A DNA stretch of 64,000 bases from a virus. The notes under the pieces were generated by a model. That model was not told the DNA's origin. It searched no databases and saw only the letters and a list, made by a program, of their open reading frames with translations. The position numbers and the translations under genes were made by a program. The DNA lies in IMG/VR virus record IMGVR_UViG_3300046616_000431, positions 1 through 64,000 of that record; one strand, given 5' to 3'. Shown here in pieces: positions 23,001 to 56,897 of the stretch (within the stretch, counting starts at the first letter, position 1; every line of letters starts with the position of its first letter).

Positions 23001-23011
23001 CCGGACAACAG

Positions 23012-23047
23012 CAAAGGCCCTCTCCGCCGGTGCGGGGAGGGCCTTTG
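23012..23047. terminator. Bidirectional terminator between convergent genes
   Basis: CAAAGGCCCTCTCC pairs with GGGGAGGGCCTTTG (23012-23025, 23034-23047) with one mismatch. It separates the forward ART operon from the reverse-strand cassette. Confidence 0.85.
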
Positions 23048-23057
23048 TGCTTCGGCG

Positions 23058-24350
23058 TCAGACGGTTTCGAGGCGCCGGTGGAACTTGGCCATGAGGACG
23101 GGGTTGGCCATGGCGTTGCCGATCGGCAGGAACAGGGCGGTGGTGGCCAGCGGATCGTCGGCGGGCGACAGGATCGGGCATCCCGGGTTCTCGGAGTGCG
23201 GCTCGGCGCCGGTCTTCTTGAGGTGTATGGCGGCGCGCAGCAGGTAGGCGGGGACGACATGATCGGGCAGGCCCAGCTCACGGACGGTCTCCTGGCTTTC
23301 GTCGCGCAGGCTGGCCGGGAGGTACGCCTGGAGCCGGATGGAGGCGTCGCAGATCTCGGTGACCCGGCGGTGCAGCCGCTGGTCCAGGCCGCGCCAGTTC
23401 CAGAAGTCAATGAGCGCGCGGCGTGTCTTGCAGGCCCTCTTCATCACGACCGGTGCTCGCGGGCTCAGCTTCCGGATTACCCATCGTTCCTTGTCGCTGC
23501 GGTAGACCACAGAGGGCACGGCGTAGGTGAGGGCGCTCCACATCGGCCGCAGGTCATTGATGGCTGCGTGCATCTCCATCCGGGCGGCCATCCGTTCCCA
23601 CATCGGCGCGCTGCTTCCGACGATCATGAGGAGGCCCCAGCTGCTGAGGGCGAAGGAGGAGAAGACCGAGACGAAGCCGTCGCCGCCGAGGAACGGCTTG
23701 TCGAAGAGGCGGACTACCAGGTAGCCGATCCGCAGGTTGGCGTACGTGGCGCCGATCGAGCAGCCGATGGCCATGCCGTGCATGCCGAGCTTGAAGGCGC
23801 CCTTGGCCTTCGGGTCGCGGCTGGCGGCAGCGAGCATCATGGAGGCACAGATCGTGCCGAAGGCCATGTAGACGTAGTAGAAGAGCAGGTGCAGGGAGCC
23901 CCAGAAGTGCCCGGCCTGCTGGAAGATGTAGTCCCCGCCCCCGTCCCCGTCCACGTTCCGGGAGGCCTGGGGAAACAGGATCACGCTGACAGCGACCGCT
24001 GCCCAGGTCGCGGCGCGCCGGGGACGGTTGCTGATGACCCTGCGGTACCGGGGCTCACGCTTGCCGTCCATGCGGCCGGGAACCACGGCCATGACCCACT
24101 GCAGCAGCAGCGCGACGCCCGCGAACCTGGAGATGTGCTGGGCCAGCATGATCGCATCGTCCCTGCCCGTGGCCTGCGCAACGAAGTCTGCGACGGAGCA
24201 GATCCGGGTCGCCATGGCGATGTCCATGACCACCAGGAAGGCCCAGAGGGCGCGGCTTTTGTGGTTGCGCAGTGCGGAGGGCAGGCGCCTGATGCATTCG
24301 AGGGTCAGGGCGATGACGGTGAGGGTGAAGAGATCAGGTGTGGCGGTCAC
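23058..24350 (-). CDS. Multi-pass membrane protein (MAB_1171c-like)
   Basis: 430 residues from the GTG at 24350, whose GTGA overlaps the stop of the peptidase gene. The N-terminal 230 residues hold about seven hydrophobic segments (LFTLTVIALTLECI, LWAFLVVMDIAMA, FAGVALLLQWVMAVV, ATWAAVAVSVILF, LHLLFYYVYMAFGTI and two more). The C-terminal 190 residues are soluble, with MWSALTYAVPSVVYR and DQRLHRRVTEICDASIRL. This matches, from memory, the actinobacterial MAB_1171c family, which is often encoded next to XRE and ImmA-like genes, as here. It acts in the cytoplasmic membrane; 'putative transporter' is the common label but the substrate is unknown. Confidence 0.72.
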   Translation of the reverse strand: MTATPDLFTLTVIALTLECIRRLPSALRNHKSRALWAFLVVMDIAMATRICSVADFVAQATGRDDAIMLAQHISRFAGVALLLQWVMAVVPGRMDGKREPRYRRVISNRPRRAATWAAVAVSVILFPQASRNVDGDGGGDYIFQQAGHFWGSLHLLFYYVYMAFGTICASMMLAAASRDPKAKGAFKLGMHGMAIGCSIGATYANLRIGYLVVRLFDKPFLGGDGFVSVFSSFALSSWGLLMIVGSSAPMWERMAARMEMHAAINDLRPMWSALTYAVPSVVYRSDKERWVIRKLSPRAPVVMKRACKTRRALIDFWNWRGLDQRLHRRVTEICDASIRLQAYLPASLRDESQETVRELGLPDHVVPAYLLRAAIHLKKTGAEPHSENPGCPILSPADDPLATTALFLPIGNAMANPVLMAKFHRRLETV

Positions 24351-24880
24351 CAAAACTCGTTTCGTGTATCGAGGCACTCTCTGATGTTGTCGACCAGGCT
24401 GGACCCCGGCGGGAGGGTTCGTGCCAGCCAGTCATCCGCGAAGTAGCTGAACTCTTCCGCTCGCTGCTCGCGGGGGTCGCTGAAGTCGGTCCTGCACATG
24501 CTGGAGGCCCACAGCGCCGCACTGGTGTGGCGGCAGAGGCCCTGGAGGAGCCTCATGAGGTCCTTGAGGTCGATCGGGTCGGGCTCGTCGCCGTTGACCA
24601 TGTGACCGAGTTCGTGGCTGACTATTCGGCGTTCCAGGACGCCGGTCGCTGCGGGGTGGATCCAGACGAGGTCGATGTTCCCGCTGCTGACCCACATGCC
24701 GCTCGGGCCGCTGGGAGACGCGGCCTGGGGATCACGGGTCACCACGAGGCGGTGTCCTCGCACCTGGCGGACGTACTCGCGAAGCAGAAGCTCGGGTGTC
24801 CGGGGCCCGTCAGGGAGAACGAGGTCCTGGAGGGCCTTGTTCCACTCGCTTCTGACGCCCCTGCCCCGCCTCAACTTCAC
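24347..24880 (-). CDS. ImmA/IrrE-type zinc metallopeptidase
   Basis: 177 residues from GTG 24880 (GAGGGGGCG upstream). The catalytic HExxH motif is VSHELGHMVNGD, with a downstream acidic residue in EQRAEEFSYFADDWLAR as the likely third ligand. Order and length fit the ImmA/IrrE group, which cleaves XRE-type repressors (known for ImmA/ImmR of ICEBs1). The XRE regulator is immediately upstream and the membrane protein is coupled downstream. Together they look like a signal-controlled repressor switch: membrane sensor, protease, repressor (inference). Confidence 0.8.
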   Translation of the reverse strand: MKLRRGRGVRSEWNKALQDLVLPDGPRTPELLLREYVRQVRGHRLVVTRDPQAASPSGPSGMWVSSGNIDLVWIHPAATGVLERRIVSHELGHMVNGDEPDPIDLKDLMRLLQGLCRHTSAALWASSMCRTDFSDPREQRAEEFSYFADDWLARTLPPGSSLVDNIRECLDTRNEFW

Positions 24881-24952
24881 CGCGCCCCCTCATGTCTCAA
24901 TCTCGCCTGTCACATACAGCAGTCAGCGTAGGCCAAAGTACTGACAGTGCAG

Positions 24953-25501
24953 TCAGGAGGGCGGCTCTTCGTCCCTGGCAATCTTGATCGCGGCCAACTG
25001 CATGTGGATCATGCCTGTGGCCGTACGGGCGTCCAGTTCGCTCGCGCCGCGCATGAGGGCCATGAGGAGCTGTCCCGCGTTCGCCGCCCCTCCCGCCTCC
25101 ATCTTCTTCTTGAGCTGGCGCACGGCGACCAGCATGTCGACCTCGTCCTCGATGGCGACGGTCTCGGGGGTGCGCTGGTCGCCCTCGAAGAAGTAGGCCG
25201 GGGAGACCTCGAAGAAGATCGCCAGGTACTGCAGGACGTCCTTGGTCGGGTTGCGCCGCTTGCCGCTGAGCAGGTCACCCATGTACTGGCGGTTCAGCAG
25301 ATCTCTTTCGTTCCGCCCCGCAGGAGGTAGTTTCTGTCGCGTGACAGAAAAGTGGTCGTCGGCGTACAACCTTGAGACCTCCTCGGCGATCTCACTGATG
25401 TCGTACTTCTCGCCATCAGGTCGACGCTTGAGGTATCGCAGGCGATGCAGCTTGTTGGCGAGCGGTCCGAGAGCGGGATCGCTCGTGGGCGCCTCTCCCA
25501 T
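24953..25501 (-). CDS. XRE-family transcriptional regulator
   Basis: 182 residues from ATG 25501 (GGAGGGGAGGGG upstream); the frame extends further but without a ribosome site. The helix-turn-helix lies around LNRQYMGDLLSGKRRNPTKDVLQYLAIFFEVSPAYFFEGD, the usual XRE pattern with a YLAIFFEVSPAYF end. The first 80 residues (LRYLKRRPDGEKYDISEIAEEVSRLY) match actinobacterial XRE proteins. The C-terminal part (VDMLVAVRQLKKKME) is a helical dimer or protease-recognition region. It faces the forward genes across a repeat-rich promoter region, so it may be the lysogeny repressor. Confidence 0.82.
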   Translation of the reverse strand: MGEAPTSDPALGPLANKLHRLRYLKRRPDGEKYDISEIAEEVSRLYADDHFSVTRQKLPPAGRNERDLLNRQYMGDLLSGKRRNPTKDVLQYLAIFFEVSPAYFFEGDQRTPETVAIEDEVDMLVAVRQLKKKMEAGGAANAGQLLMALMRGASELDARTATGMIHMQLAAIKIARDEEPPS

Positions 25502-25570
25502 GAGTCGCCCCTCCCCTCCATCTTGAAAAATGTCTCCGGCAGTCGCGGCAGAGTCTACCCACGATGTCGA

Positions 25571-25647
25571 GAAAGTTGACACGGGCTCGTGTTGTTGAAC
25601 TTTCTTGCGTCTGAAGTTGACACGACCGGAGGTACGGGACGTACGAT
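25571..25647. promoter_or_regulatory. Operator/promoter cluster upstream of the XRE regulator
   Basis: GAAAGTT (25571-25577) and AACTTTC (25598-25604) form an inverted repeat. AAGTTGACACG occurs at 25573-25583 and again at 25614-25624, 41 bases apart. TTGACA (25617-25622) with TACGAT (25642-25647) could be a forward promoter with a long 19-base spacer. Likely binding sites of the divergent XRE protein. Confidence 0.6.
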
Positions 25648-25728
25648 TCCGCTCACGGAAGGCAACATTTGAGCGGGGGGTGAAGCAGAGTGGCGGCTGA
25701 GACCAGTGGGACCGCCCCGCTCGCGCTC

Positions 25729-25794: not shown

Positions 25795-26094
25795 GTGCCT
25801 ACTCCCGCTCTCGTCCGCACGGTCGTCCCGATGGCCGTCGGCTTCGTGCTGGCGTTCCTCGCCTCGTACAACGTCCACGCCAGCGCCGAGTTCACACAGA
25901 ACCTCACCGGCCTGCTGACCGTGGTCCTCGGCGCCGCGTACTACGCGCTCGCCCACCTGCTTCAGTCTCGCTGGCCCCTCGCGGGGCTCCTTCTCGGCTC
26001 CACCGCCAGGCCGACCTACGAAGGACGCCACCGCCGCAAGGCCAGCATCAGTCCGGCGACCGCCACGTCGGACACTCCGGAGAACCAGCTGTAG
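25795..26094 (+). CDS. Two-pass membrane protein, 99 aa
   Basis: GTG 25795 with ribosome site CAAGGAG; the frame also opens at GTG 25690, but that start would put element 8 inside the gene. Segments ALVRTVVPMAVGFVLAFLASY and FTQNLTGLLTVVLGAAYYALAHLL span the membrane, with a short external loop and a basic Pro/Thr-rich cytoplasmic tail. The pattern is that of small phage holins and of superinfection-exclusion proteins. It stands alone between the repressor region and a strong terminator, so it might be an antagonist of the lysis system or a second holin. Confidence 0.7.
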   Translation: MPTPALVRTVVPMAVGFVLAFLASYNVHASAEFTQNLTGLLTVVLGAAYYALAHLLQSRWPLAGLLLGSTARPTYEGRHRRKASISPATATSDTPENQL

Positions 26095-26479: not shown

Positions 26480-29179
26480 GTGCTGAAGTTCGCCACGGCC
26501 CAGATCATCGCCGCCAGCCTCGGCGACCAGCAGCGCGTCACGAAGGCCGCCCACCGCGCCGTCTTCAGCTACGAGGCGCGGCCGGGATACCTGTACGTGC
26601 GCTCCCGGGCCATCTCCTCGCGCTGCAACGACAACTGGGACGAGTTCCCCGCCGAGGAGATCGCGAAGGCGTACGGCTCCTTCGTCGGCAAGCCGGTCTT
26701 CGTGAACCACAAGAACGACAACCACCGGCGGGCGCGCGGCGTCATCATCGACGCCGCCCTCCACGAGGACAAGAACCCCGACGGCACCCCGGACACCTGG
26801 GCCGAGGTCCTCATGGAGATCGACGCCAAGCAGTTCCCGAAGCTGGCCAAGGCGATCCTCGCCGGTCACATCGACCGGACCTCCATGGGCTGCGACGTCG
26901 AGCGCTCCGTGTGCTCCGCCTGCGGCAACGTGGCGACCACCCCGGCCGAATACTGCGCACACATCCCGGGCCTGAAGGGCAAGCGGCTCTTCCGGCACAC
27001 CGCCTCCGGCCAGCGCGTCGGCGAGCTGGTCCGCGAGACCTGCTACGGCCTGTCATTCTTCGAGAACTCGGTCCTCGTCGAGCCCCCGGCCGATCCGACG
27101 GCCCACTTCCTCGGCGTGGACTCCTCCGGCCTCGGCAAGGCCGCCGCGATCGACTTCTCCGACTACGACCACGACGGCCTGGAAGAGGACGACGACGAGG
27201 AGAACAAGCCGCACACCCCGACGCCCACGGCTCCTTCGCAGCACCCTCGTCCGGCCCAGCCGCACGTCCCGAACAACGGGACCGCGCACGACAACCAGCG
27301 ACGTCGTGACGTCGTAACGAACACGCACCCCTTCACACCGCTGAAGCCCAGCCTCAACACCCTGCAGACGACGGCCTCCCTCGAAGTCGAGGCGGCCGGA
27401 CCCCAGTACCAGAACCCGGGCGACCACCCCTGGTTCAAGGAGACCGGACTCAGCCACGAGCACGTCCTGAACCACTGGGACCAGGCCACCGACGAGGAGA
27501 AGAAGCAGGGCGCCCGCTGGTACCCGGACGCCCACCACGTCGCCAAGGCCATCGCGAAGCTGAACCCCGACATCACGGACGACAAGGAGGCCGCCCACAA
27601 GGGCGCCGGTGTCCTGTCGGCCTACAGCCCGCAGCAGAACTGGTGGGCCAACCAGCACAACGCCGCACGCTCGTTCGTCGGCAAGAAGGCCGTCGGCAAG
27701 GGCGAGGGCCTGATGGTCATGTCCTCCCACGCCAACGCCGCGCAGAAGATCCTGGACGGCGAGGACCACCAGAAGGTCCTCAAGGGCCCCAAGACCCAGG
27801 ACTTCGCCCACCTGATCGAGCACGGCGGCAACGACGAACACGGCCAGCCGTCCAAGCGCGTCGTCATCGACCGGCACGCCCTGTCCGTCGCCGCCGGACG
27901 CCGCCTGAACGCCGACGACTCCAAGGGCTTCCCCTCCAGCAACCGGCACTACTACGAGCACGCCGCCGACCAGTACCGCACGGCCGCCGCCGTCATATCC
28001 GACCGCGAGAAGCGCCACGTCCCGCCGCACGAGGTCCAGGCCGTCACCTGGCTCACCCGCCAGCGCCTGAACGCGGCCGAGGACGAAGGCTCCCCGGGCG
28101 GCAAGGGCCGCCAGACCGTGCAGCGCAACCAGCGCCAGCAGTGGAAGGACCTCGCGGGCGAGCACACCCCCCAGCTCAAGGACGACGGCAACTCGCACGT
28201 CTCCAAGCTCGTCAGCGCCGACGCCATCCTGGAGGACGGCACGATCCGCACCGTGGCGTACGGAGAGGTCAAGGCCCCGGCCGACGTCGACACCCTCCGC
28301 GAGGAAAACTGCCCCGTCTGCGGCGACAGCGACACCTACGACGGCCAGGCCTGCCAGATCTGCGGGTTCATCAGCCCGCCGACACAGTTCCGCGACCCCG
28401 ACCTCGACATGGCCAAGCGCCTCGACCTGCGCAAGCAGATCGTCGACCCCTCCCTCGTCGACAACAACGGCGAGCTGCAGCGCGTCGACCAGGACGGCAA
28501 CGCCATGCCGCAGGACCCGAACGCCGACCCCAACGCGGACCCCAACGACCCCGACGCGCAGGCCGACCCCAACGACCCGAACGCGCAGATGGTCGACCCG
28601 GACCAGCTCGACGAGAACGGCCTGCCGCCGTCCCCGTACGGAGACCAGGCCCTCGACGGCACCCAGCAGGGCCCCAGCCAGTCCGACCGCAACGGCGACG
28701 GCATGATCCAGCCCAACGAGATCGACATGGACGGCAACGCCAACGTCCAGCAGCAGGTCGACCCGGAGATGGGCGGCCAGGCCGGACCCCGCGAACTGCC
28801 CGGCTGGGGCAAGGACCGCACCGGCGACGCCTTCACCCCCGGCCCCGACATGCCCTACCGCCCCGACGAGCCGGGCAACCCCAACGACGTCCTCGGCCAG
28901 GACGACGACGACCGCAACCCGATGGGCATGCCGACCCCGGCCCCCATGATGGGCCGCCCCGGCGACGGCATCCCGGACCTGATGTGCGGCAACTGCGGCT
29001 TCGCAGCCGACGCCACCCCGCCCCAGACCCAGAACATGGGCGACCCCATGGCGGCCACCGACGGCGTACTCGACGGCGACGTCTGCCCCAGCTGCCAGCG
29101 CGGCCAGCTCCTGACCCCCGGCGAGATCAACTCGAACTATTCCAAGGCACCTGCTGTCGAGCACCCCGCATACAGCTGA
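26480..29179 (+). CDS. Capsid maturation protease fused to DUF7178-like and zinc-ribbon domains
   Basis: 899 residues from GTG 26480 (ACAGGAGG). Residues 1-230 (SFVGKPVFVNHKNDNHRRAR, ILAGHIDRTSMGCDVER, TCYGLSFFENSVLVEPPADP) resemble head proteases of large actinobacterial myoviruses, with a CSACGN...YC insertion. Residues about 305-540 hold GAGVLSAYSPQQNWWANQHNAARS and VVIDRHALSVAAGRRLN, which I relate from memory to DUF7178, a phage family of unknown function. Then follow a ribbon (CPVCGD...CQICGF), an Asp/Pro/Asn tract (DPNADPNDPDAQADPNDPN) and a last ribbon (CGNCGF...CPSC). The position before scaffold and capsid genes supports the protease call. The fusion is unusual. Confidence 0.65.
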   Translation: MLKFATAQIIAASLGDQQRVTKAAHRAVFSYEARPGYLYVRSRAISSRCNDNWDEFPAEEIAKAYGSFVGKPVFVNHKNDNHRRARGVIIDAALHEDKNPDGTPDTWAEVLMEIDAKQFPKLAKAILAGHIDRTSMGCDVERSVCSACGNVATTPAEYCAHIPGLKGKRLFRHTASGQRVGELVRETCYGLSFFENSVLVEPPADPTAHFLGVDSSGLGKAAAIDFSDYDHDGLEEDDDEENKPHTPTPTAPSQHPRPAQPHVPNNGTAHDNQRRRDVVTNTHPFTPLKPSLNTLQTTASLEVEAAGPQYQNPGDHPWFKETGLSHEHVLNHWDQATDEEKKQGARWYPDAHHVAKAIAKLNPDITDDKEAAHKGAGVLSAYSPQQNWWANQHNAARSFVGKKAVGKGEGLMVMSSHANAAQKILDGEDHQKVLKGPKTQDFAHLIEHGGNDEHGQPSKRVVIDRHALSVAAGRRLNADDSKGFPSSNRHYYEHAADQYRTAAAVISDREKRHVPPHEVQAVTWLTRQRLNAAEDEGSPGGKGRQTVQRNQRQQWKDLAGEHTPQLKDDGNSHVSKLVSADAILEDGTIRTVAYGEVKAPADVDTLREENCPVCGDSDTYDGQACQICGFISPPTQFRDPDLDMAKRLDLRKQIVDPSLVDNNGELQRVDQDGNAMPQDPNADPNADPNDPDAQADPNDPNAQMVDPDQLDENGLPPSPYGDQALDGTQQGPSQSDRNGDGMIQPNEIDMDGNANVQQQVDPEMGGQAGPRELPGWGKDRTGDAFTPGPDMPYRPDEPGNPNDVLGQDDDDRNPMGMPTPAPMMGRPGDGIPDLMCGNCGFAADATPPQTQNMGDPMAATDGVLDGDVCPSCQRGQLLTPGEINSNYSKAPAVEHPAYS
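27300..27313. other. Recurrent 14-mer GACGTCGTGACGTC, copy 3
   Basis: Lies in the linker of the protease gene (reads D-V-V-T). It breaks an otherwise low-complexity stretch and is identical to the copies at 522-535 and 4277-4290. Confidence 0.4.
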
Positions 29180-30813: not shown

Positions 30814-31803
30814 ATGACCGCAGCGCTCCACGCTGGGCACAAGGGCGGCGTCACCGCCAAGAAGTCCGACGACTACGTCAACGACATCCTCGCCCGCCGC
30901 GAGAGCCAGGGCCACGCCCCGCTCTCCACCCAGGCGAAGATGCAGCGCCTCCAGTCCGTCGTCTCCGACCAGACCAACGGCATCAAGCGCCTGGGCGTCG
31001 GCATGATCGGCCCCATCCAGTTGAAGCTCCGCTACCAGGGCATCACCCGGAACGTGCTGGTCGAGGACCCCTGCACCCCCGGCACACCGGTCGAGTACGA
31101 CGTGTGGGACGACCTCGGTCAGGCCTACATGATGTCCGGCACCGAGGGCGAAGTCCGCATCACCCCCTTCGAAGGCAAGCGCATCCAGGTGCGGTTCTTC
31201 CGCATAGCCTCGCGCCCCGCCATCCGCAAGGAAGACCTCCTCTACCTGCGCATCAACGCGGTCGAGCAGGCCCAGGACGAGACCAAGCAGGCCATCCTCA
31301 AGCAGGAGGACTCGCGCCTGATCACGATCCTCCAGGCCGCGATCTCGGACTACACCAACCGCTCCGACCACACGGTCACCCCCAACCACGTGGTCAACGA
31401 GGCGTCGGGCTACCTGACCCCGGGCTCGCTCTACAGCGCGGTCTCCCTGACCGACATGCACGAGCTGCAGTCCAGCCGCATCCTGATCAACCCGATGGAC
31501 TACCGCGACATGTACCGGTGGGACATCAACCAGACGGGCTGGGCCTTCAAGGACCGCGTCGTCGCGGGCGAGACGATCACCTCGTTCGGCGAGTTCCAGC
31601 TCCAGCGCTCCATCGTCGTCCCTCAGGGCGAGACCTACCTGACCCCGGACCCGCAGTTCCTCGGCGTCTTCCCGGTCCTGTACTCGCTCGATGTCGAGGA
31701 AAACCACCGCGTGGAAAGTTTCTGGAAGGGTTGGGTCTTCGATGAGATGATCAGCATGCTGATTTTGAATCCGCGCGGCCTCGCGAAAATCGTGAAGTCG
31801 TAG
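30814..31803 (+). CDS. Major capsid protein
   Basis: 329 residues; ribosome site AGAGGAA. Builds the icosahedral head, HK97-type fold inferred. Support: length, place after the decoration candidate and the protease, and a pattern with an N-terminal helical arm, EYDVWDDLGQAYMMSGTEGEVRITPFEGKRIQVRFFRIASRP (E-loop and P-domain-like) and DMYRWDINQTGWAFKDRVVAGETITSFGEFQLQRSIVVPQG. The last 100 bases use AT-ending codons (GAA, AGT, GGT, GAT, ATT, TTG, AAT, AAA) more than the rest. The C-terminus GLAKIVKS is repeated at the end of the next gene (GLGKIVKS). Confidence 0.85.
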   Translation: MTAALHAGHKGGVTAKKSDDYVNDILARRESQGHAPLSTQAKMQRLQSVVSDQTNGIKRLGVGMIGPIQLKLRYQGITRNVLVEDPCTPGTPVEYDVWDDLGQAYMMSGTEGEVRITPFEGKRIQVRFFRIASRPAIRKEDLLYLRINAVEQAQDETKQAILKQEDSRLITILQAAISDYTNRSDHTVTPNHVVNEASGYLTPGSLYSAVSLTDMHELQSSRILINPMDYRDMYRWDINQTGWAFKDRVVAGETITSFGEFQLQRSIVVPQGETYLTPDPQFLGVFPVLYSLDVEENHRVESFWKGWVFDEMISMLILNPRGLAKIVKS

Positions 31804-31878: not shown

Positions 31879-31950
31879 TGCTGCTCGACAGCAACCCAGG
31901 CCTCTCGCAGCGACCCAACCAAGTGGTTCTCAACTAAATTGCTAAAAAAC

Positions 31951-32012
31951 GAGGGCTCCTCTAGACTTGCAGGTGTACCGGCCAAGGTGACACCGCCTCC
32001 AGAGGAGCCCTC
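31951..32012 (+). promoter_or_regulatory. Hairpin that hides the nuclease ribosome site
   Basis: GAGGGCTCCTCT (31951-31962) pairs perfectly over 12 bp with AGAGGAGCCCTC (32001-32012). The right arm contains AGAGGAG, the ribosome site for the GTG at 32014. A smaller GGTGT/ACACC pair lies inside the loop. Folding would block translation. Confidence 0.72.
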
Positions 32013-32013
32013 T

Positions 32014-33672
32014 GTGTCGAATGCTAATGCCAACCTCTACCGAGACCGCGCTGACGAGGTCGAGCGCCTCTTCGTGAACGAGCAGATGTCGGCCCCGAAA
32101 ATCGCTGAGCAGACTGGCGTCCCGGACTACCAGGTCCGCCTGCTGCTTAAAGAGCGCGGCCATGACCTCGCCAAGAGGCGCTCCCAGAAGGAGCTGCGCC
32201 TGCCGGAAGTCACGCCGCTCCTGGAGCAGCGGATGCCTCTCAAGGAGATCGCCAAGCAGACGTCGATCCCGTACGCCACCTTGCGCCGGTGGCTCCAGGA
32301 GGAAGGCATCGACACTGGCGCCAACGACCCGGACGCGACCCGGCGCGAACAGCTCATCGACGAGGTCGTGGCCCGCTACCAGAACACCCAGCCCGCCAAC
32401 ACCATCGCTGCCGACCTGGGGCTCTCGCACGGGACTGTCCTGCGGTGGCTGCACGAGCGCGGAATCGAGATCCGGCGAGCGCCACTCAAGCGCACCGCCC
32501 ACAAGAAGATCAAGCACCTCGACGAGGTGCTGAGGCTGCACCGCGAAGAGGGCAAGACGACCAGCGAGATCACCACCCTCGTGCCGGTCGCTCGGGGCAC
32601 CGTGGAAGCCTGGCTCCGAGACGCTGGAGAGAAGCCCCGCTATAGCACCCCCGCTCAGAAGAAGGCCGAGAGGGAGGAAGACCCCCGGCGTCAGATGGTG
32701 CTGTCCCTCTACCAGAGCGGCTCCACCTGGAAGCAGATCGTCGCCGAGGCTCACGTCGCGGAGACGACGGCGCGCGGCTGGGTTGCGGAGGCCGGAATCC
32801 AGGGGCAGGGTGGCAAGGCTGCGCGGGACACCAGAAAGCGCGCCGAGGCCCTGCGCCTGGCGCGCGAGGAGGACCTGCCCATCATGGAGATCTGCGCGGC
32901 CGTCGAGGCGAGTTACTACAAGGTTCGAGAGTGGCTGGACGAGGAGGGCGTACGCGTCCGCCAGCCCGGCGAGCGAACCCCCGACGGCATCCGCCGCAGC
33001 GCGCAGGGCGCCAAGGGCGGCCCGCGTGGTCGCCGCGCTACCAACCGGCCTGCTGCGCCTATCTCTCGTCGGCCGCGCAACCCCGTGCTCCCGCGCGAGT
33101 GCGCCGCGCCGGACTGCACCGAGACCTTCACGTCGCCCACCCGGAAGTACCACAACGACGAGTGCCGGGCGAAGTGGGCCAAGCGCCGCGAGGCCGACCC
33201 GAACAATCACGTCACCTACACCTGCCAGAACTGCAGTAATGAGTTCACCAGGCCGAGGTCCTCGGGCTCCTTCCGGTACTGCTCCAACGACTGCGCCCAG
33301 CGCCACACCAAGACGAAGCAGCACGTGGTGGTGGAGGACGCGGTGGTGCTGGACTCGTCGTACGAGACTCTTCTGTGGTCGCTGTGCCGTATCTACAAGG
33401 TTCCCGTGGAGCGCTACGACCGAGCTGGCGGAGTGGAGTGGCGTGAGGGCGGCTGGTACGCGCCGGACCTTCTGGTGGAGTGGCAGGGGCGCAGCGTGAC
33501 CGTCGAGACGAAGGGCCTTACCGACCCCGAGGACGAGGAGCGCTGGGCCGCGTTCCGCTCCCAGTCCGACGTCCCCCTGGTCGTCCTGACCCAGGCGGAG
33601 TTGGTGCCGCCTCCGGCCAGCCGCGAGGAGCTGCTGGATTTGCTGGGTCTGGGCAAGATCGTCAAGTCGTAG
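32014..33672 (+). CDS. HTH-array endonuclease with zinc fingers and PD-(D/E)XK domain
   Basis: 552 residues from GTG 32014 (AGAGGAG, seven bases upstream). Six helix-turn-helix units of about 50 residues occupy residues 10-310, each ending like YATLRRWLQEEGI, HGTVLRWLHERGI, RGTVEAWLRDAGE or TTARGWVAEAGI. Two zinc fingers follow (CAAPDCTETF...HNDEC and CQNCSNEF...CSNDC, about 364-427). The C-terminal nuclease has PDLLVEWQGRSVTVETKG (about 484-500), a PD-(D/E)XK site. Lying alone between the capsid gene and the next unit, it is probably a freestanding homing endonuclease. It is not of HNH, GIY-YIG or LAGLIDADG type. Confidence 0.82.
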   Translation: MSNANANLYRDRADEVERLFVNEQMSAPKIAEQTGVPDYQVRLLLKERGHDLAKRRSQKELRLPEVTPLLEQRMPLKEIAKQTSIPYATLRRWLQEEGIDTGANDPDATRREQLIDEVVARYQNTQPANTIAADLGLSHGTVLRWLHERGIEIRRAPLKRTAHKKIKHLDEVLRLHREEGKTTSEITTLVPVARGTVEAWLRDAGEKPRYSTPAQKKAEREEDPRRQMVLSLYQSGSTWKQIVAEAHVAETTARGWVAEAGIQGQGGKAARDTRKRAEALRLAREEDLPIMEICAAVEASYYKVREWLDEEGVRVRQPGERTPDGIRRSAQGAKGGPRGRRATNRPAAPISRRPRNPVLPRECAAPDCTETFTSPTRKYHNDECRAKWAKRREADPNNHVTYTCQNCSNEFTRPRSSGSFRYCSNDCAQRHTKTKQHVVVEDAVVLDSSYETLLWSLCRIYKVPVERYDRAGGVEWREGGWYAPDLLVEWQGRSVTVETKGLTDPEDEERWAAFRSQSDVPLVVLTQAELVPPPASREELLDLLGLGKIVKS

Positions 33673-56012: not shown

Positions 56013-56897
56013 TCAGCTCTTGAGCAAGCCTTCAGCCTCGGCCAGCCTCTGCTTCATCTCATCGACATACTCCTGAGCGGACTGCCGGTCGACCGTGACC
56101 AGCTCCTTGAGGAGCCCCAGGTCGATCTTTCCGGCGGCCCGAGCCTCCTTCAGGCGGACATCGACAGGGCGCGACTGGCGGGCGCCGATCGCCTTCGGCT
56201 CCTGCGCAGCGGCGGCACTGGCGTCCATTAGGCGGCGGAGATTCTTTACCGCCGAGACGGTCACCGGCCCTTCGGCTGCCAGCTCGTCGTACTTGGCCCG
56301 GAGGAGGTCGGGGTCATCCTTACCCAGGGCGTAGAGCTGCTCGACCACCAGCTGCGCCAGCGGAGTGGTCACTCGACTCCCCAGCGTCGAGTAGACAACG
56401 TAGTGCCGGATCGCGCGGTAGTAGACGTGCCGCTCGATGCCGATCGCCTTGGCGAACTTCTCAACGGACTTGTGGCCGCCCGCCGTGTAGCTGCCCTTCT
56501 TCTGAACCTCGGCGAACCAGCGGCCGGTGAGGATCCAGTAGTTGGTCTCGATCTGGGCGAACCCGTTCCCGGCCGCTTCGCCGACCTTGCGGATCTGGCG
56601 TTCCGCGTGAGCAAGGTGCTGCAAGTCGGAAGAGTCATCCGGCGCCTGGACGTACTCGAAGGGGTTCGAGGGCTCCGGGGAGTGGATGATCCCTTCGAGA
56701 GGCGCCGGGGCGACCTGGTGCGGCACCTCGACCTCGGCCGGGGCGCTCGCTGCAGCCTGGGCGGCCTCCGTCAGTGCGGGGTCGTCCTCCCCTCGCCGGG
56801 CGACCGGCTTGACGGCGGCCAGCGCAGCTGCACCCTTCGCCGCCCGCCTCTCGGCCGCCGTCTTCGGTCCCTGCTTGGTTCCTTCTCCGAGCCTCAC
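56013..56897 (-). CDS. Centromere-binding protein candidate (ParB position)
   Basis: 294 residues from a GTG that overlaps the parA stop (GTGA). It has no canonical ParB N-domain. Residues 1-90 are Ala/Pro-rich and basic. A helix-turn-helix is likely near 145-165 (KSVEKFAKAIGIERHVYYRAIRHY). YGLG-like loops (ALGKDDPDLLRAKYDELAAEGPVTVSAVKNLRRLMD) and a C-terminal coiled coil (QSAQEYVDEMKQRLAEAEGLLKS) follow. It is the second gene of the partition operon and lies next to paired palindromes, so it probably binds them and partners ParA. Homology to characterised ParB or ParR proteins is not established. Confidence 0.72.
   Translation of the reverse strand: MRLGEGTKQGPKTAAERRAAKGAAALAAVKPVARRGEDDPALTEAAQAAASAPAEVEVPHQVAPAPLEGIIHSPEPSNPFEYVQAPDDSSDLQHLAHAERQIRKVGEAAGNGFAQIETNYWILTGRWFAEVQKKGSYTAGGHKSVEKFAKAIGIERHVYYRAIRHYVVYSTLGSRVTTPLAQLVVEQLYALGKDDPDLLRAKYDELAAEGPVTVSAVKNLRRLMDASAAAAQEPKAIGARQSRPVDVRLKEARAAGKIDLGLLKELVTVDRQSAQEYVDEMKQRLAEAEGLLKS

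What the first reader, a model, noticed from the sequence alone, without database searches (positions are those of the whole stretch)
23058..25647. XRE - ImmA peptidase - seven-pass membrane protein cassette as a membrane-signalled lysogeny switch
Three reverse genes overlap or closely follow one another: repressor-like XRE, HELGH peptidase and a MAB_1171c-type membrane protein. In ICEBs1, ImmA destroys ImmR; a membrane partner would add a signal input. Paired AAGTTGACACG sites and a GAAAGTT inverted repeat lie in the divergent promoter region. The membrane family is common in Streptomyces but its role is unknown.
Basis: partly seen in the sequence, partly recalled or inferred. Interest (0 to 1): 0.72.

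Follow-up and report, generated by a model that had tools for sequence, protein, structure and literature searches.

The report
Phage-plasmid repressor, protease and membrane receptor
A large Streptomyces virus that can persist as a plasmid carries a three-gene cassette (a DNA-binding repressor, a repressor-cutting-type protease and a seven-pass membrane protein of unknown role) that probably helps control its dormant state, and the same cassette recurs in unrelated viruses and in most Streptomyces chromosomes sampled.

Summary
The three leftward genes are real. The upstream gene encodes an EspR-like XRE protein. The second encodes an ImmA/CapP/IrrE-fold peptidase with HExxH and ExxAE. The third encodes a MAB_1171c (DUF6545) protein with seven helices, N-out/C-in. 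The record is a 112-kb fragment of a Bxz1-capsid phage whose close relatives are circular Streptomyces phage-plasmids. Each close relative carries the cassette at the same place, with ParA in 5 of 6. None of 14 more distant capsid relatives has cassette or ParA. An unrelated phage-plasmid family (Gilgamesh) and integrated prophages carry sister copies; these cluster apart from the chromosomal copies, which are common (36 of 41 Streptomyces genomes). I therefore favour an ImmR-ImmA-type control cassette active in the prophage state, with the membrane protein as probable signal input. Repressor binding, cleavage and signalling are inferred. The 'paired sites' are partly reinterpreted: the 25614 copy is the -35 of a divergent promoter (TTGACA-N19-TACGAT) conserved in 8 of 8 relatives; the 25573 copy and the inverted repeat are private to this record. 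Whether this is the main lysogeny switch is open: two other clade-specific HTH genes exist, and the motif has no other intergenic copy in the record.

The parts
23003..23055 (.). bidirectional terminator-like hairpin between the cassette and the convergent rightward gene
   Evidence: RNA fold -32.6 kcal/mol, z -6.2, 0 of 200 shuffles as stable
23058..24350 (-). MAB_1171c-family (DUF6545) protein, 430 aa: seven hydrophobic helices, N-out/C-in, plus C-terminal all-helical cytoplasmic region
   Evidence: NF042915 112.8 bits, PF20182 E=8e-17; model pLDDT 83; hydropathy and loop charges
24347..24880 (-). ImmA/CapP/IrrE-like zinc metallopeptidase, 177 aa (HELGH, ExxAE)
   Evidence: H89 E90 H93 E138 A141 E142 invariant in 14 relatives; fold match CapP 7t5t Z 8.5, IrrE 3dti Z 7.8
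24953..25501 (-). EspR-like XRE DNA-binding protein, 182 aa
   Evidence: family profile matches EspR 3r1f, E=9e-14; 6 of 12 relatives match HTH_3 weakly
25552..25557 (-). candidate -10 (TAGACT) of the cassette promoter; TAGGAT at the same column in six of seven relatives, not in L105
   Evidence: alignment of upstream regions
25570..25605 (.). inverted repeat AGAAAGTT/AACTTTCT and the first AAGTTGACACG (25573-25583); private to this record
25614..25647 (+). conserved divergent promoter: AAGTTGACACG holding the -35 TTGACA (25617-25622), 19-nt spacer, -10 TACGAT (25642-25647)
   Evidence: present with the same spacing in 8 of 8 cassette-bearing records compared; only exact copy in the 112-kb record, 0.001 expected by base composition
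25795..26094 (+). first gene of the divergent operon: small membrane protein
   Evidence: homologues at the same place in relatives
26480..29179 (+). head maturation protease-type gene of the divergent structural operon
   Evidence: phrog_18299 E=3e-22
30814..31803 (+). major head protein of the Bxz1/Myrna type
   Evidence: phrog_2522 E=3e-106; 58-59% to cluster-C-type actinophages; 89% to plasmid pRLB1-9.1
56894..57685 (-). ParA-like partition ATPase (lysogeny marker)
   Evidence: phrog_164 E=3e-20; MipZ E=4e-8
56013..56897 (-). probable partner of ParA, no family match

Best explanation
This is an ImmR-ImmA-type control cassette expressed in the prophage state of a Streptomyces phage-plasmid. 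SHOWN by sequence or model: the gene order EspR-like XRE, CapP/IrrE-fold peptidase, seven-helix membrane protein, in a leftward unit ended by a hairpin and facing a conserved rightward promoter (TTGACA-N19-TACGAT) that opens the head-gene operon; conservation of the block throughout the lysogenic clade; sister copies in unrelated phage-plasmids and prophages. INFERRED: the XRE protein binds the 25502-25690 region, controls its own promoter and holds down the rightward one; on a signal the peptidase cuts the XRE protein and releases the structural genes; the seven-helix protein, through its cytoplasmic helical domain, gates the peptidase in response to a membrane or extracellular cue, so that a receptor and a soluble protease together would do what BlaR1 does in one protein. 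The cue is not known; the PAP2-like fourth gene in most copies (and the UppS gene in the Gilgamesh group) hints at a lipid or cell-envelope cue.
For: Block conserved at one place in all cassette-bearing relatives. ParA in 5 of 6 cassette-bearing records (the sixth is a 53-kb fragment), cassette and ParA in 0 of 14 without. Close relatives are free elements: pRLB1-9.1 circular 154,158 bp, a whole 156,949-bp contig of Streptomyces sp. MH60. Independent phage backbones: Gilgamesh and circular 125-130 kb plasmids, beside ParA, S. cacaoi prophage beside the terminase, and an integrated prophage between ParB and integrase. One clade of mobile copies, support 100/100. Peptidase fold and zinc site. 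XRE matches EspR. Conserved divergent promoter. Co-divergence r 0.89-0.96. ImmA-membrane gene link in 54 of 60 chromosomal loci, 53 of them with HExxH. Working analogues: ImmR/ImmA (PMC10233336), MpaR (PMC6872733), PprI and CapP (PMC10904395), BlaR1 (PMC9834060).
Against: The cassette lies inside the late region, not beside the early replication genes. GTGTCAAC has no other intergenic copy in the record, so control may be local. The ParA link is confounded by descent: the cassette-bearing capsid relatives may be one clade with one gain. Four-gene copies are common in chromosomes, so the function need not be phage-specific. Other clade-specific HTH genes could be the main repressor. No operator pattern is conserved beyond the -35 box. 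The only phenotype in print for the membrane family (M. abscessus MAB_1171c knockout: less biofilm; listed among 'MIC mutants' with cefoxitin MIC 4 against 16) says nothing of regulation (PMC8707978).
Confidence: 0.45

Rival explanations
1. Accessory lysogenic-conversion or superinfection/defence module. XRE and ImmA merely control their own cassette (as CapH/CapP control CBASS), and the seven-helix protein, with the PAP2-like one, is the effector acting on the envelope or on incoming phages; the phage's lysogeny is run elsewhere.
For: Host chromosomes carry about three copies each; four-gene chromosomal versions; weak CapH match of the XRE protein; peptidase closest to CapP by fold; the motif has no other intergenic copy in the record; the cassette sits as an island between late genes, flanked by a terminator.
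Against: Held without exception through a divergent clade (membrane protein about 27% identical in L105) at the same locus, unlike typical fast-swapping morons; faces a conserved promoter of the head operon; no PADLOC match for the membrane protein.
Confidence: 0.35
2. The main immunity or replication control lies elsewhere: the leftward winged-HTH protein 73610-74923, divergent from the replication helicase gene, or the XRE protein at 93067-93687. The cassette then plays a side role.
For: Both genes occur in the four complete cassette-bearing relatives and in none of the eight records without the cassette that were searched; the 601-bp divergent gap beside the helicase gene is the usual place for a lysogeny control region.
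Against: 73610-74923 could equally be a plasmid replication protein; no iterons found. The same clade confounding applies to all these genes.
Confidence: 0.3
3. Toxin-antitoxin pair (peptidase as toxin, XRE as antitoxin), the 'toxin component' or 'regulator component' name that some records give to ImmA-like genes, with a passenger membrane gene.
For: One ImmA-like plasmid gene is annotated 'regulator component'; two-gene XRE-metallopeptidase loci are often read as TA systems, as discussed in PMC10233336 and PMC10538038.
Against: ImmA of TnSmu1 was not toxic on overexpression and the pair did not behave as a TA system (PMC10233336); MpaR proved to be an anti-repressor (PMC6872733); the membrane gene is the constant partner.
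Confidence: 0.05
4. The membrane protein is a transporter, as NCBI names it, with its own regulator pair.
For: Name of NF042915; the M. abscessus study read it as a transport protein (PMC8707978).
Against: Seven helices, N-out/C-in, with a C-terminal cytosolic domain; no match to a solved transporter by sequence. Its best structural neighbours are seven-pass receptors at Z 13-15, near the level that helical bundles reach by chance.
Confidence: 0.08

Closest known systems
ICEBs1 ImmR-ImmA, TnSmu1 ImmRA and Listeria MpaR (repressor plus metalloprotease anti-repressor)
   Same: XRE gene followed at once by a HExxH peptidase gene, divergent from element genes, on mobile elements of the lysogenic type (PMC10233336, PMC6872733)
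   Different: XRE is EspR-like rather than CI-like; a seven-helix membrane gene always follows, often with a PAP2-like gene; cleavage and induction untested here
CapH-CapP (CBASS) and DdrO-PprI/IrrE
   Same: peptidase fold (CapP Z 8.5, IrrE Z 7.8); repressor-protease logic, ssDNA-activated in PprI and CapP (PMC10904395)
   Different: the 177-aa peptidase is shorter than the solved CapP and PprI chains (240-278 aa) and seems to lack their C-terminal sensor domain (PprI: GAF-like); the sensor role may have passed to the membrane protein (inference)
BlaR1-BlaI / MecR1-MecI
   Same: proposed logic: membrane receptor, zinc metalloprotease, repressor cleavage (PMC9834060)
   Different: BlaR1 is one fused protein; here receptor and protease are separate, and no homology is claimed
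Mycobacterial EspR
   Same: sequence family of the XRE protein (E=9e-14)
   Different: the window protein has a longer linker and an ImmA partner; no nucleoid role is known
Bxz1/Myrna-type cluster C actinophage myoviruses
   Same: major capsid protein 58-59% identical, head-gene order
   Different: MAB_1171c and ParA not found in the more distant capsid relatives searched; the window clade lives as plasmids

Membership tests
ImmR-ImmA-type repressor/anti-repressor module | XRE DNA-binding gene immediately followed by a HExxH metallopeptidase gene on a mobile element | tested here: met
ImmR-ImmA-type repressor/anti-repressor module | peptidase has the IrrE/ImmA/CapP fold with intact zinc site | tested here: met
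   7t5t CapP Z 8.5, rmsd 4.3, 141 aligned; 3dti IrrE Z 7.8, rmsd 3.1, 105 aligned; HExxH and ExxAE invariant. Sequence alone gives only weak PF06114 hits in 7 of 14 relatives, none in the window protein
ImmR-ImmA-type repressor/anti-repressor module | repressor binds the divergent promoter region | not testable with these tools
   conserved promoter found; no binding assay, no conserved operator
ImmR-ImmA-type repressor/anti-repressor module | peptidase cleaves the repressor | not testable with these tools
   co-divergence r=0.91 of peptidase and XRE is only suggestive
MAB_1171c family (NF042915) | score over NCBI's curated cut-off | tested here: met
   112.8 against 100 bits
EspR-type XRE | profile match to EspR over the HTH and following region | tested here: met
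   profile of 12 relatives, E=9e-14 to 3r1f; the window protein alone has no Pfam hit
phage-plasmid | phage structural genes plus partition gene, found as a complete circular element | tested here: met
   capsid and ParA in this record; circularity shown only for the relative pRLB1-9.1, not for this linear 112-kb fragment
CBASS or other PADLOC defence system | effector or nucleotidyltransferase gene in the cassette | tested here: inconclusive
   no PADLOC hit for the membrane protein, weak CapH (0.0008) for the XRE protein
GPCR-like seven-pass receptor fold | significant structural match of the seven-helix bundle | tested here: inconclusive
   best Z 15.1 (9j3x, rmsd 3.9, 220 aligned), others 13.5-14.9, but helical bundles reach 14 by chance; Foldseek best E 0.09

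The most novel reading that the evidence does not exclude
A two-protein 'split BlaR1': a seven-pass receptor-like protein gates a separate ImmA/CapP-type protease that destroys an EspR-like repressor, so that a membrane or extracellular cue decides prophage behaviour. Phage-plasmids and prophages of at least four backbones would share this module with the multiple cassettes that most Streptomyces chromosomes carry.
Probability: 0.25. Interest if true: 0.8.

Novelty: new variant of a known kind. Interest (0 to 1): 0.52.

Why it matters
Known ImmA/IrrE/CapP proteases are switched by DNA damage or by cytoplasmic partners (PMC10233336, PMC10904395). A membrane partner kept beside the protease in 54 of 60 chromosomal loci and in several phage lineages would be a new input route, and it gives a testable role to a family (MAB_1171c/DUF6545) found in 36 of 41 Streptomyces genomes and almost unmentioned in the held literature. 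It also marks a lysogenic, plasmid-forming branch of the Bxz1-type phages and offers small test systems for a cassette that chromosomes carry in several copies.

Tried and rejected
Dispersed operators (stoperators): GTGTCAAC has no intergenic copy outside this region in 112 kb. Conserved paired operator: the 25573 copy and the inverted repeat are absent from seven relatives. PADLOC defence effector: none. Solved homologue of the membrane protein by sequence: none. GPCR homology: not claimed, Z in the range of chance for helical bundles. Integrase in the record: none found, but the record is a fragment and two larger relatives and Gilgamesh have tyrosine recombinases. Iterons near the rival regulator 73610-74923: none clear. 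DNA-level phage relatives: none by megablast. Promoter scan with 16-18-nt spacers found nothing because the conserved spacer is 19 nt. Single-sequence viral scan with the membrane protein found nothing; the ImmA query and a profile worked. Literature on DUF6545: none held.

Full report
OBSERVATION. The window holds a leftward three-gene unit: XRE 24953-25501, peptidase 24347-24880 and membrane protein 23058-24350, with a 72-nt gap and then a 4-nt overlap. It ends at a strong hairpin, 23003-23055, -32.6 kcal/mol, z -6.2. The membrane protein passes NCBI's cut-off for the MAB_1171c family (112.8 against 100 bits) and matches DUF6545. The other two have no Pfam hit of their own. The profile of 12 XRE relatives matches mycobacterial EspR (E=9e-14). 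The model of the peptidase (pLDDT 80) aligns best to CapP (7t5t, Z 8.5, rmsd 4.3, 141 aligned) and IrrE/PprI (Z 7.8-6.9, rmsd 3.1-3.3, 102-105 aligned), well above the unrelated metallopeptidases at Z 4. HExxH and ExxAE are invariant in 14 relatives.

MEMBRANE PROTEIN. The model (pLDDT 83) has seven hydrophobic helices. Loops 28-34, 89-108 and 177-184 are positively charged and loop 132-149 is acidic, so the N-terminus is out and the C-terminus in; residues 247-430 form a cytoplasmic all-helical region. Its structural neighbours are seven-pass receptors at Z 13-15, but Foldseek gives no E under 0.08 and helical bundles reach such Z by chance, so receptor likeness is a hint only.

WHAT CARRIES IT. 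The record (G000) is a 112,362-bp virus contig. Its capsid is 58-59% identical to Skog, Myrna and other Bxz1/cluster C-type phages and 89% identical to the circular 154,158-bp plasmid pRLB1-9.1 of Streptomyces sp. RLB1-9, where the cassette sits at the same place. The 156,949-bp relative is a whole contig of Streptomyces sp. MH60. Leftward genes are few in the record: the cassette, a 74-aa gene, ParA with its neighbour, and a winged-HTH gene at 73610-74923, which is the pattern expected of prophage-state genes. ParA is confirmed by phrog_164 and MipZ.

DISTRIBUTION AMONG RELATIVES. In the capsid relatives with enough sequence, those at 88% capsid identity or more and one at 79% (L105) have the cassette at the same place. 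In the more distant relatives read gene by gene, that interval holds rightward genes only, apart from one doubtful 59-aa reverse ORF in L111 and two small reverse ORFs in L116. Searching 20 whole records, the membrane family is in 6; ParA is in 5 of these (the sixth is a 53-kb fragment) and in none of the 14 others, several of which are 154-166 kb long. This is one association that may follow from a single common origin; it is not 20 independent events.

INDEPENDENT BACKBONES. Streptomyces phage Gilgamesh, which lacks this capsid family, has XRE-metalloprotease-membrane-PAP2-like-UppS-ParA in a row, as do circular Streptomyces plasmids of 125-130 kb. pMDJK44.2 (CP023977), also a carrier, is mentioned among earlier-listed phage-plasmids in PMC10023795. 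An integrated prophage (L214) has the block between ParB and an integrase, and S. cacaoi has it beside a terminase. In a tree of 75 membrane proteins all these fall in one clade (25 rows, 100/100) apart from the other chromosomal copies; the window's group is itself a clade (99/92). Six rows of that clade come from bacterial genome assemblies: two are shown to be prophages by their neighbours, the other four were not fully checked.

CHROMOSOMAL COUSINS. The family is in 36 of 41 Streptomyces genomes, about three copies each. Of 60 loci examined, 54 have an ImmA-like gene just upstream (53 with HExxH), 29 an EspR-like XRE within the 1.5 kb held, and 20 a PAP2-like gene downstream. Distances of membrane protein, peptidase and XRE correlate at 0.89-0.96 across 38 cassettes, against at most 0.20 in permutations; this shows block inheritance, which shared ancestry alone can give. 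The window, L006 and pRLB1-9.1 lack the PAP2-like gene, so it is dispensable.

DNA SITES. The two AAGTTGACACG copies and the inverted repeat exist. The copy at 25614 contains the -35 of TTGACA-N19-TACGAT, found with identical spacing in all 8 cassette-bearing records compared, including the divergent L105, and nowhere else in the record (0.001 expected by composition). It points at the small membrane gene 25795-26094 and the head genes. The second copy and the inverted repeat are private to this record. GTGTCAAC has no other intergenic copy in 112 kb, so if XRE reads it, control is local.

MECHANISM AND RIVALS. Repressor-metalloprotease pairs of this layout act as derepression switches in ICEBs1/TnSmu1 (PMC10233336) and in Listeria prophage elements (PMC6872733); PprI and CapP are activated by ssDNA (PMC10904395). 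The window peptidase (177 aa) is shorter than those, and its constant neighbour is a seven-pass protein, so the simplest reading is that sensing moved to the membrane, as in the fused BlaR1 (PMC9834060). That step is inference. The strongest rival is an accessory membrane module under CapHP-like self-control. A further rival puts the main switch at 73610-74923 or 93067-93687, both of which are also clade-specific.

VERDICT. A real and conserved cassette; a new variant of a known kind (a repressor-protease switch with a conserved membrane partner) in a lysogenic branch of Bxz1-type phages. Function untested.

Noticed in passing
L003:10610-11923 (record 73610-74923, -): 437-aa leftward winged-HTH protein, divergent from the replication helicase gene across 601 bp, present in the four complete cassette-bearing relatives and not found in the eight records without the cassette; candidate replication or immunity regulator.
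   Followed up: partly
L004:11067-11687 (record 93067-93687, +): Second XRE-type protein (HTH_31), also limited to the cassette-bearing relatives.
   Followed up: partly
L002:4496-12437 (Gilgamesh) and L029, L030, L032: A family of 125-130 kb Streptomyces circular 'plasmids' matches phage Gilgamesh; XRE-ImmA-MAB_1171c-PAP2-like-UppS-ParA is conserved in order. A viral polyprenyl diphosphate synthase beside a PAP2-like gene suggests envelope-lipid chemistry.
   Followed up: partly
L002:5988-6461 (gp97) and homologues: Gene divergent from the XRE gene in Gilgamesh-type elements and prophages; no Pfam match; by eye it resembles anti-sigma-factor-like ATPase domains.
   Followed up: no
G007:C152, G009:C21, G018:C1, G022:C4: Chromosomal MAB_1171c genes often lie in tandem pairs or triples behind one ImmA-like gene.
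   Followed up: no
L028 and L034: Two Streptomyces plasmids have cas2e a few kilobases downstream of the MAB_1171c gene.
   Followed up: no
window 31939-33672: Long protein with repeated HTH domains and HNH endonuclease matches between capsid and tail genes; possible homing endonuclease.
   Followed up: no
window 26480-29179: Head maturation protease fused to a DUF7178 region; the corresponding gene in pRLB1-9.1 is annotated as a ParB/RepB partition protein.
   Followed up: no
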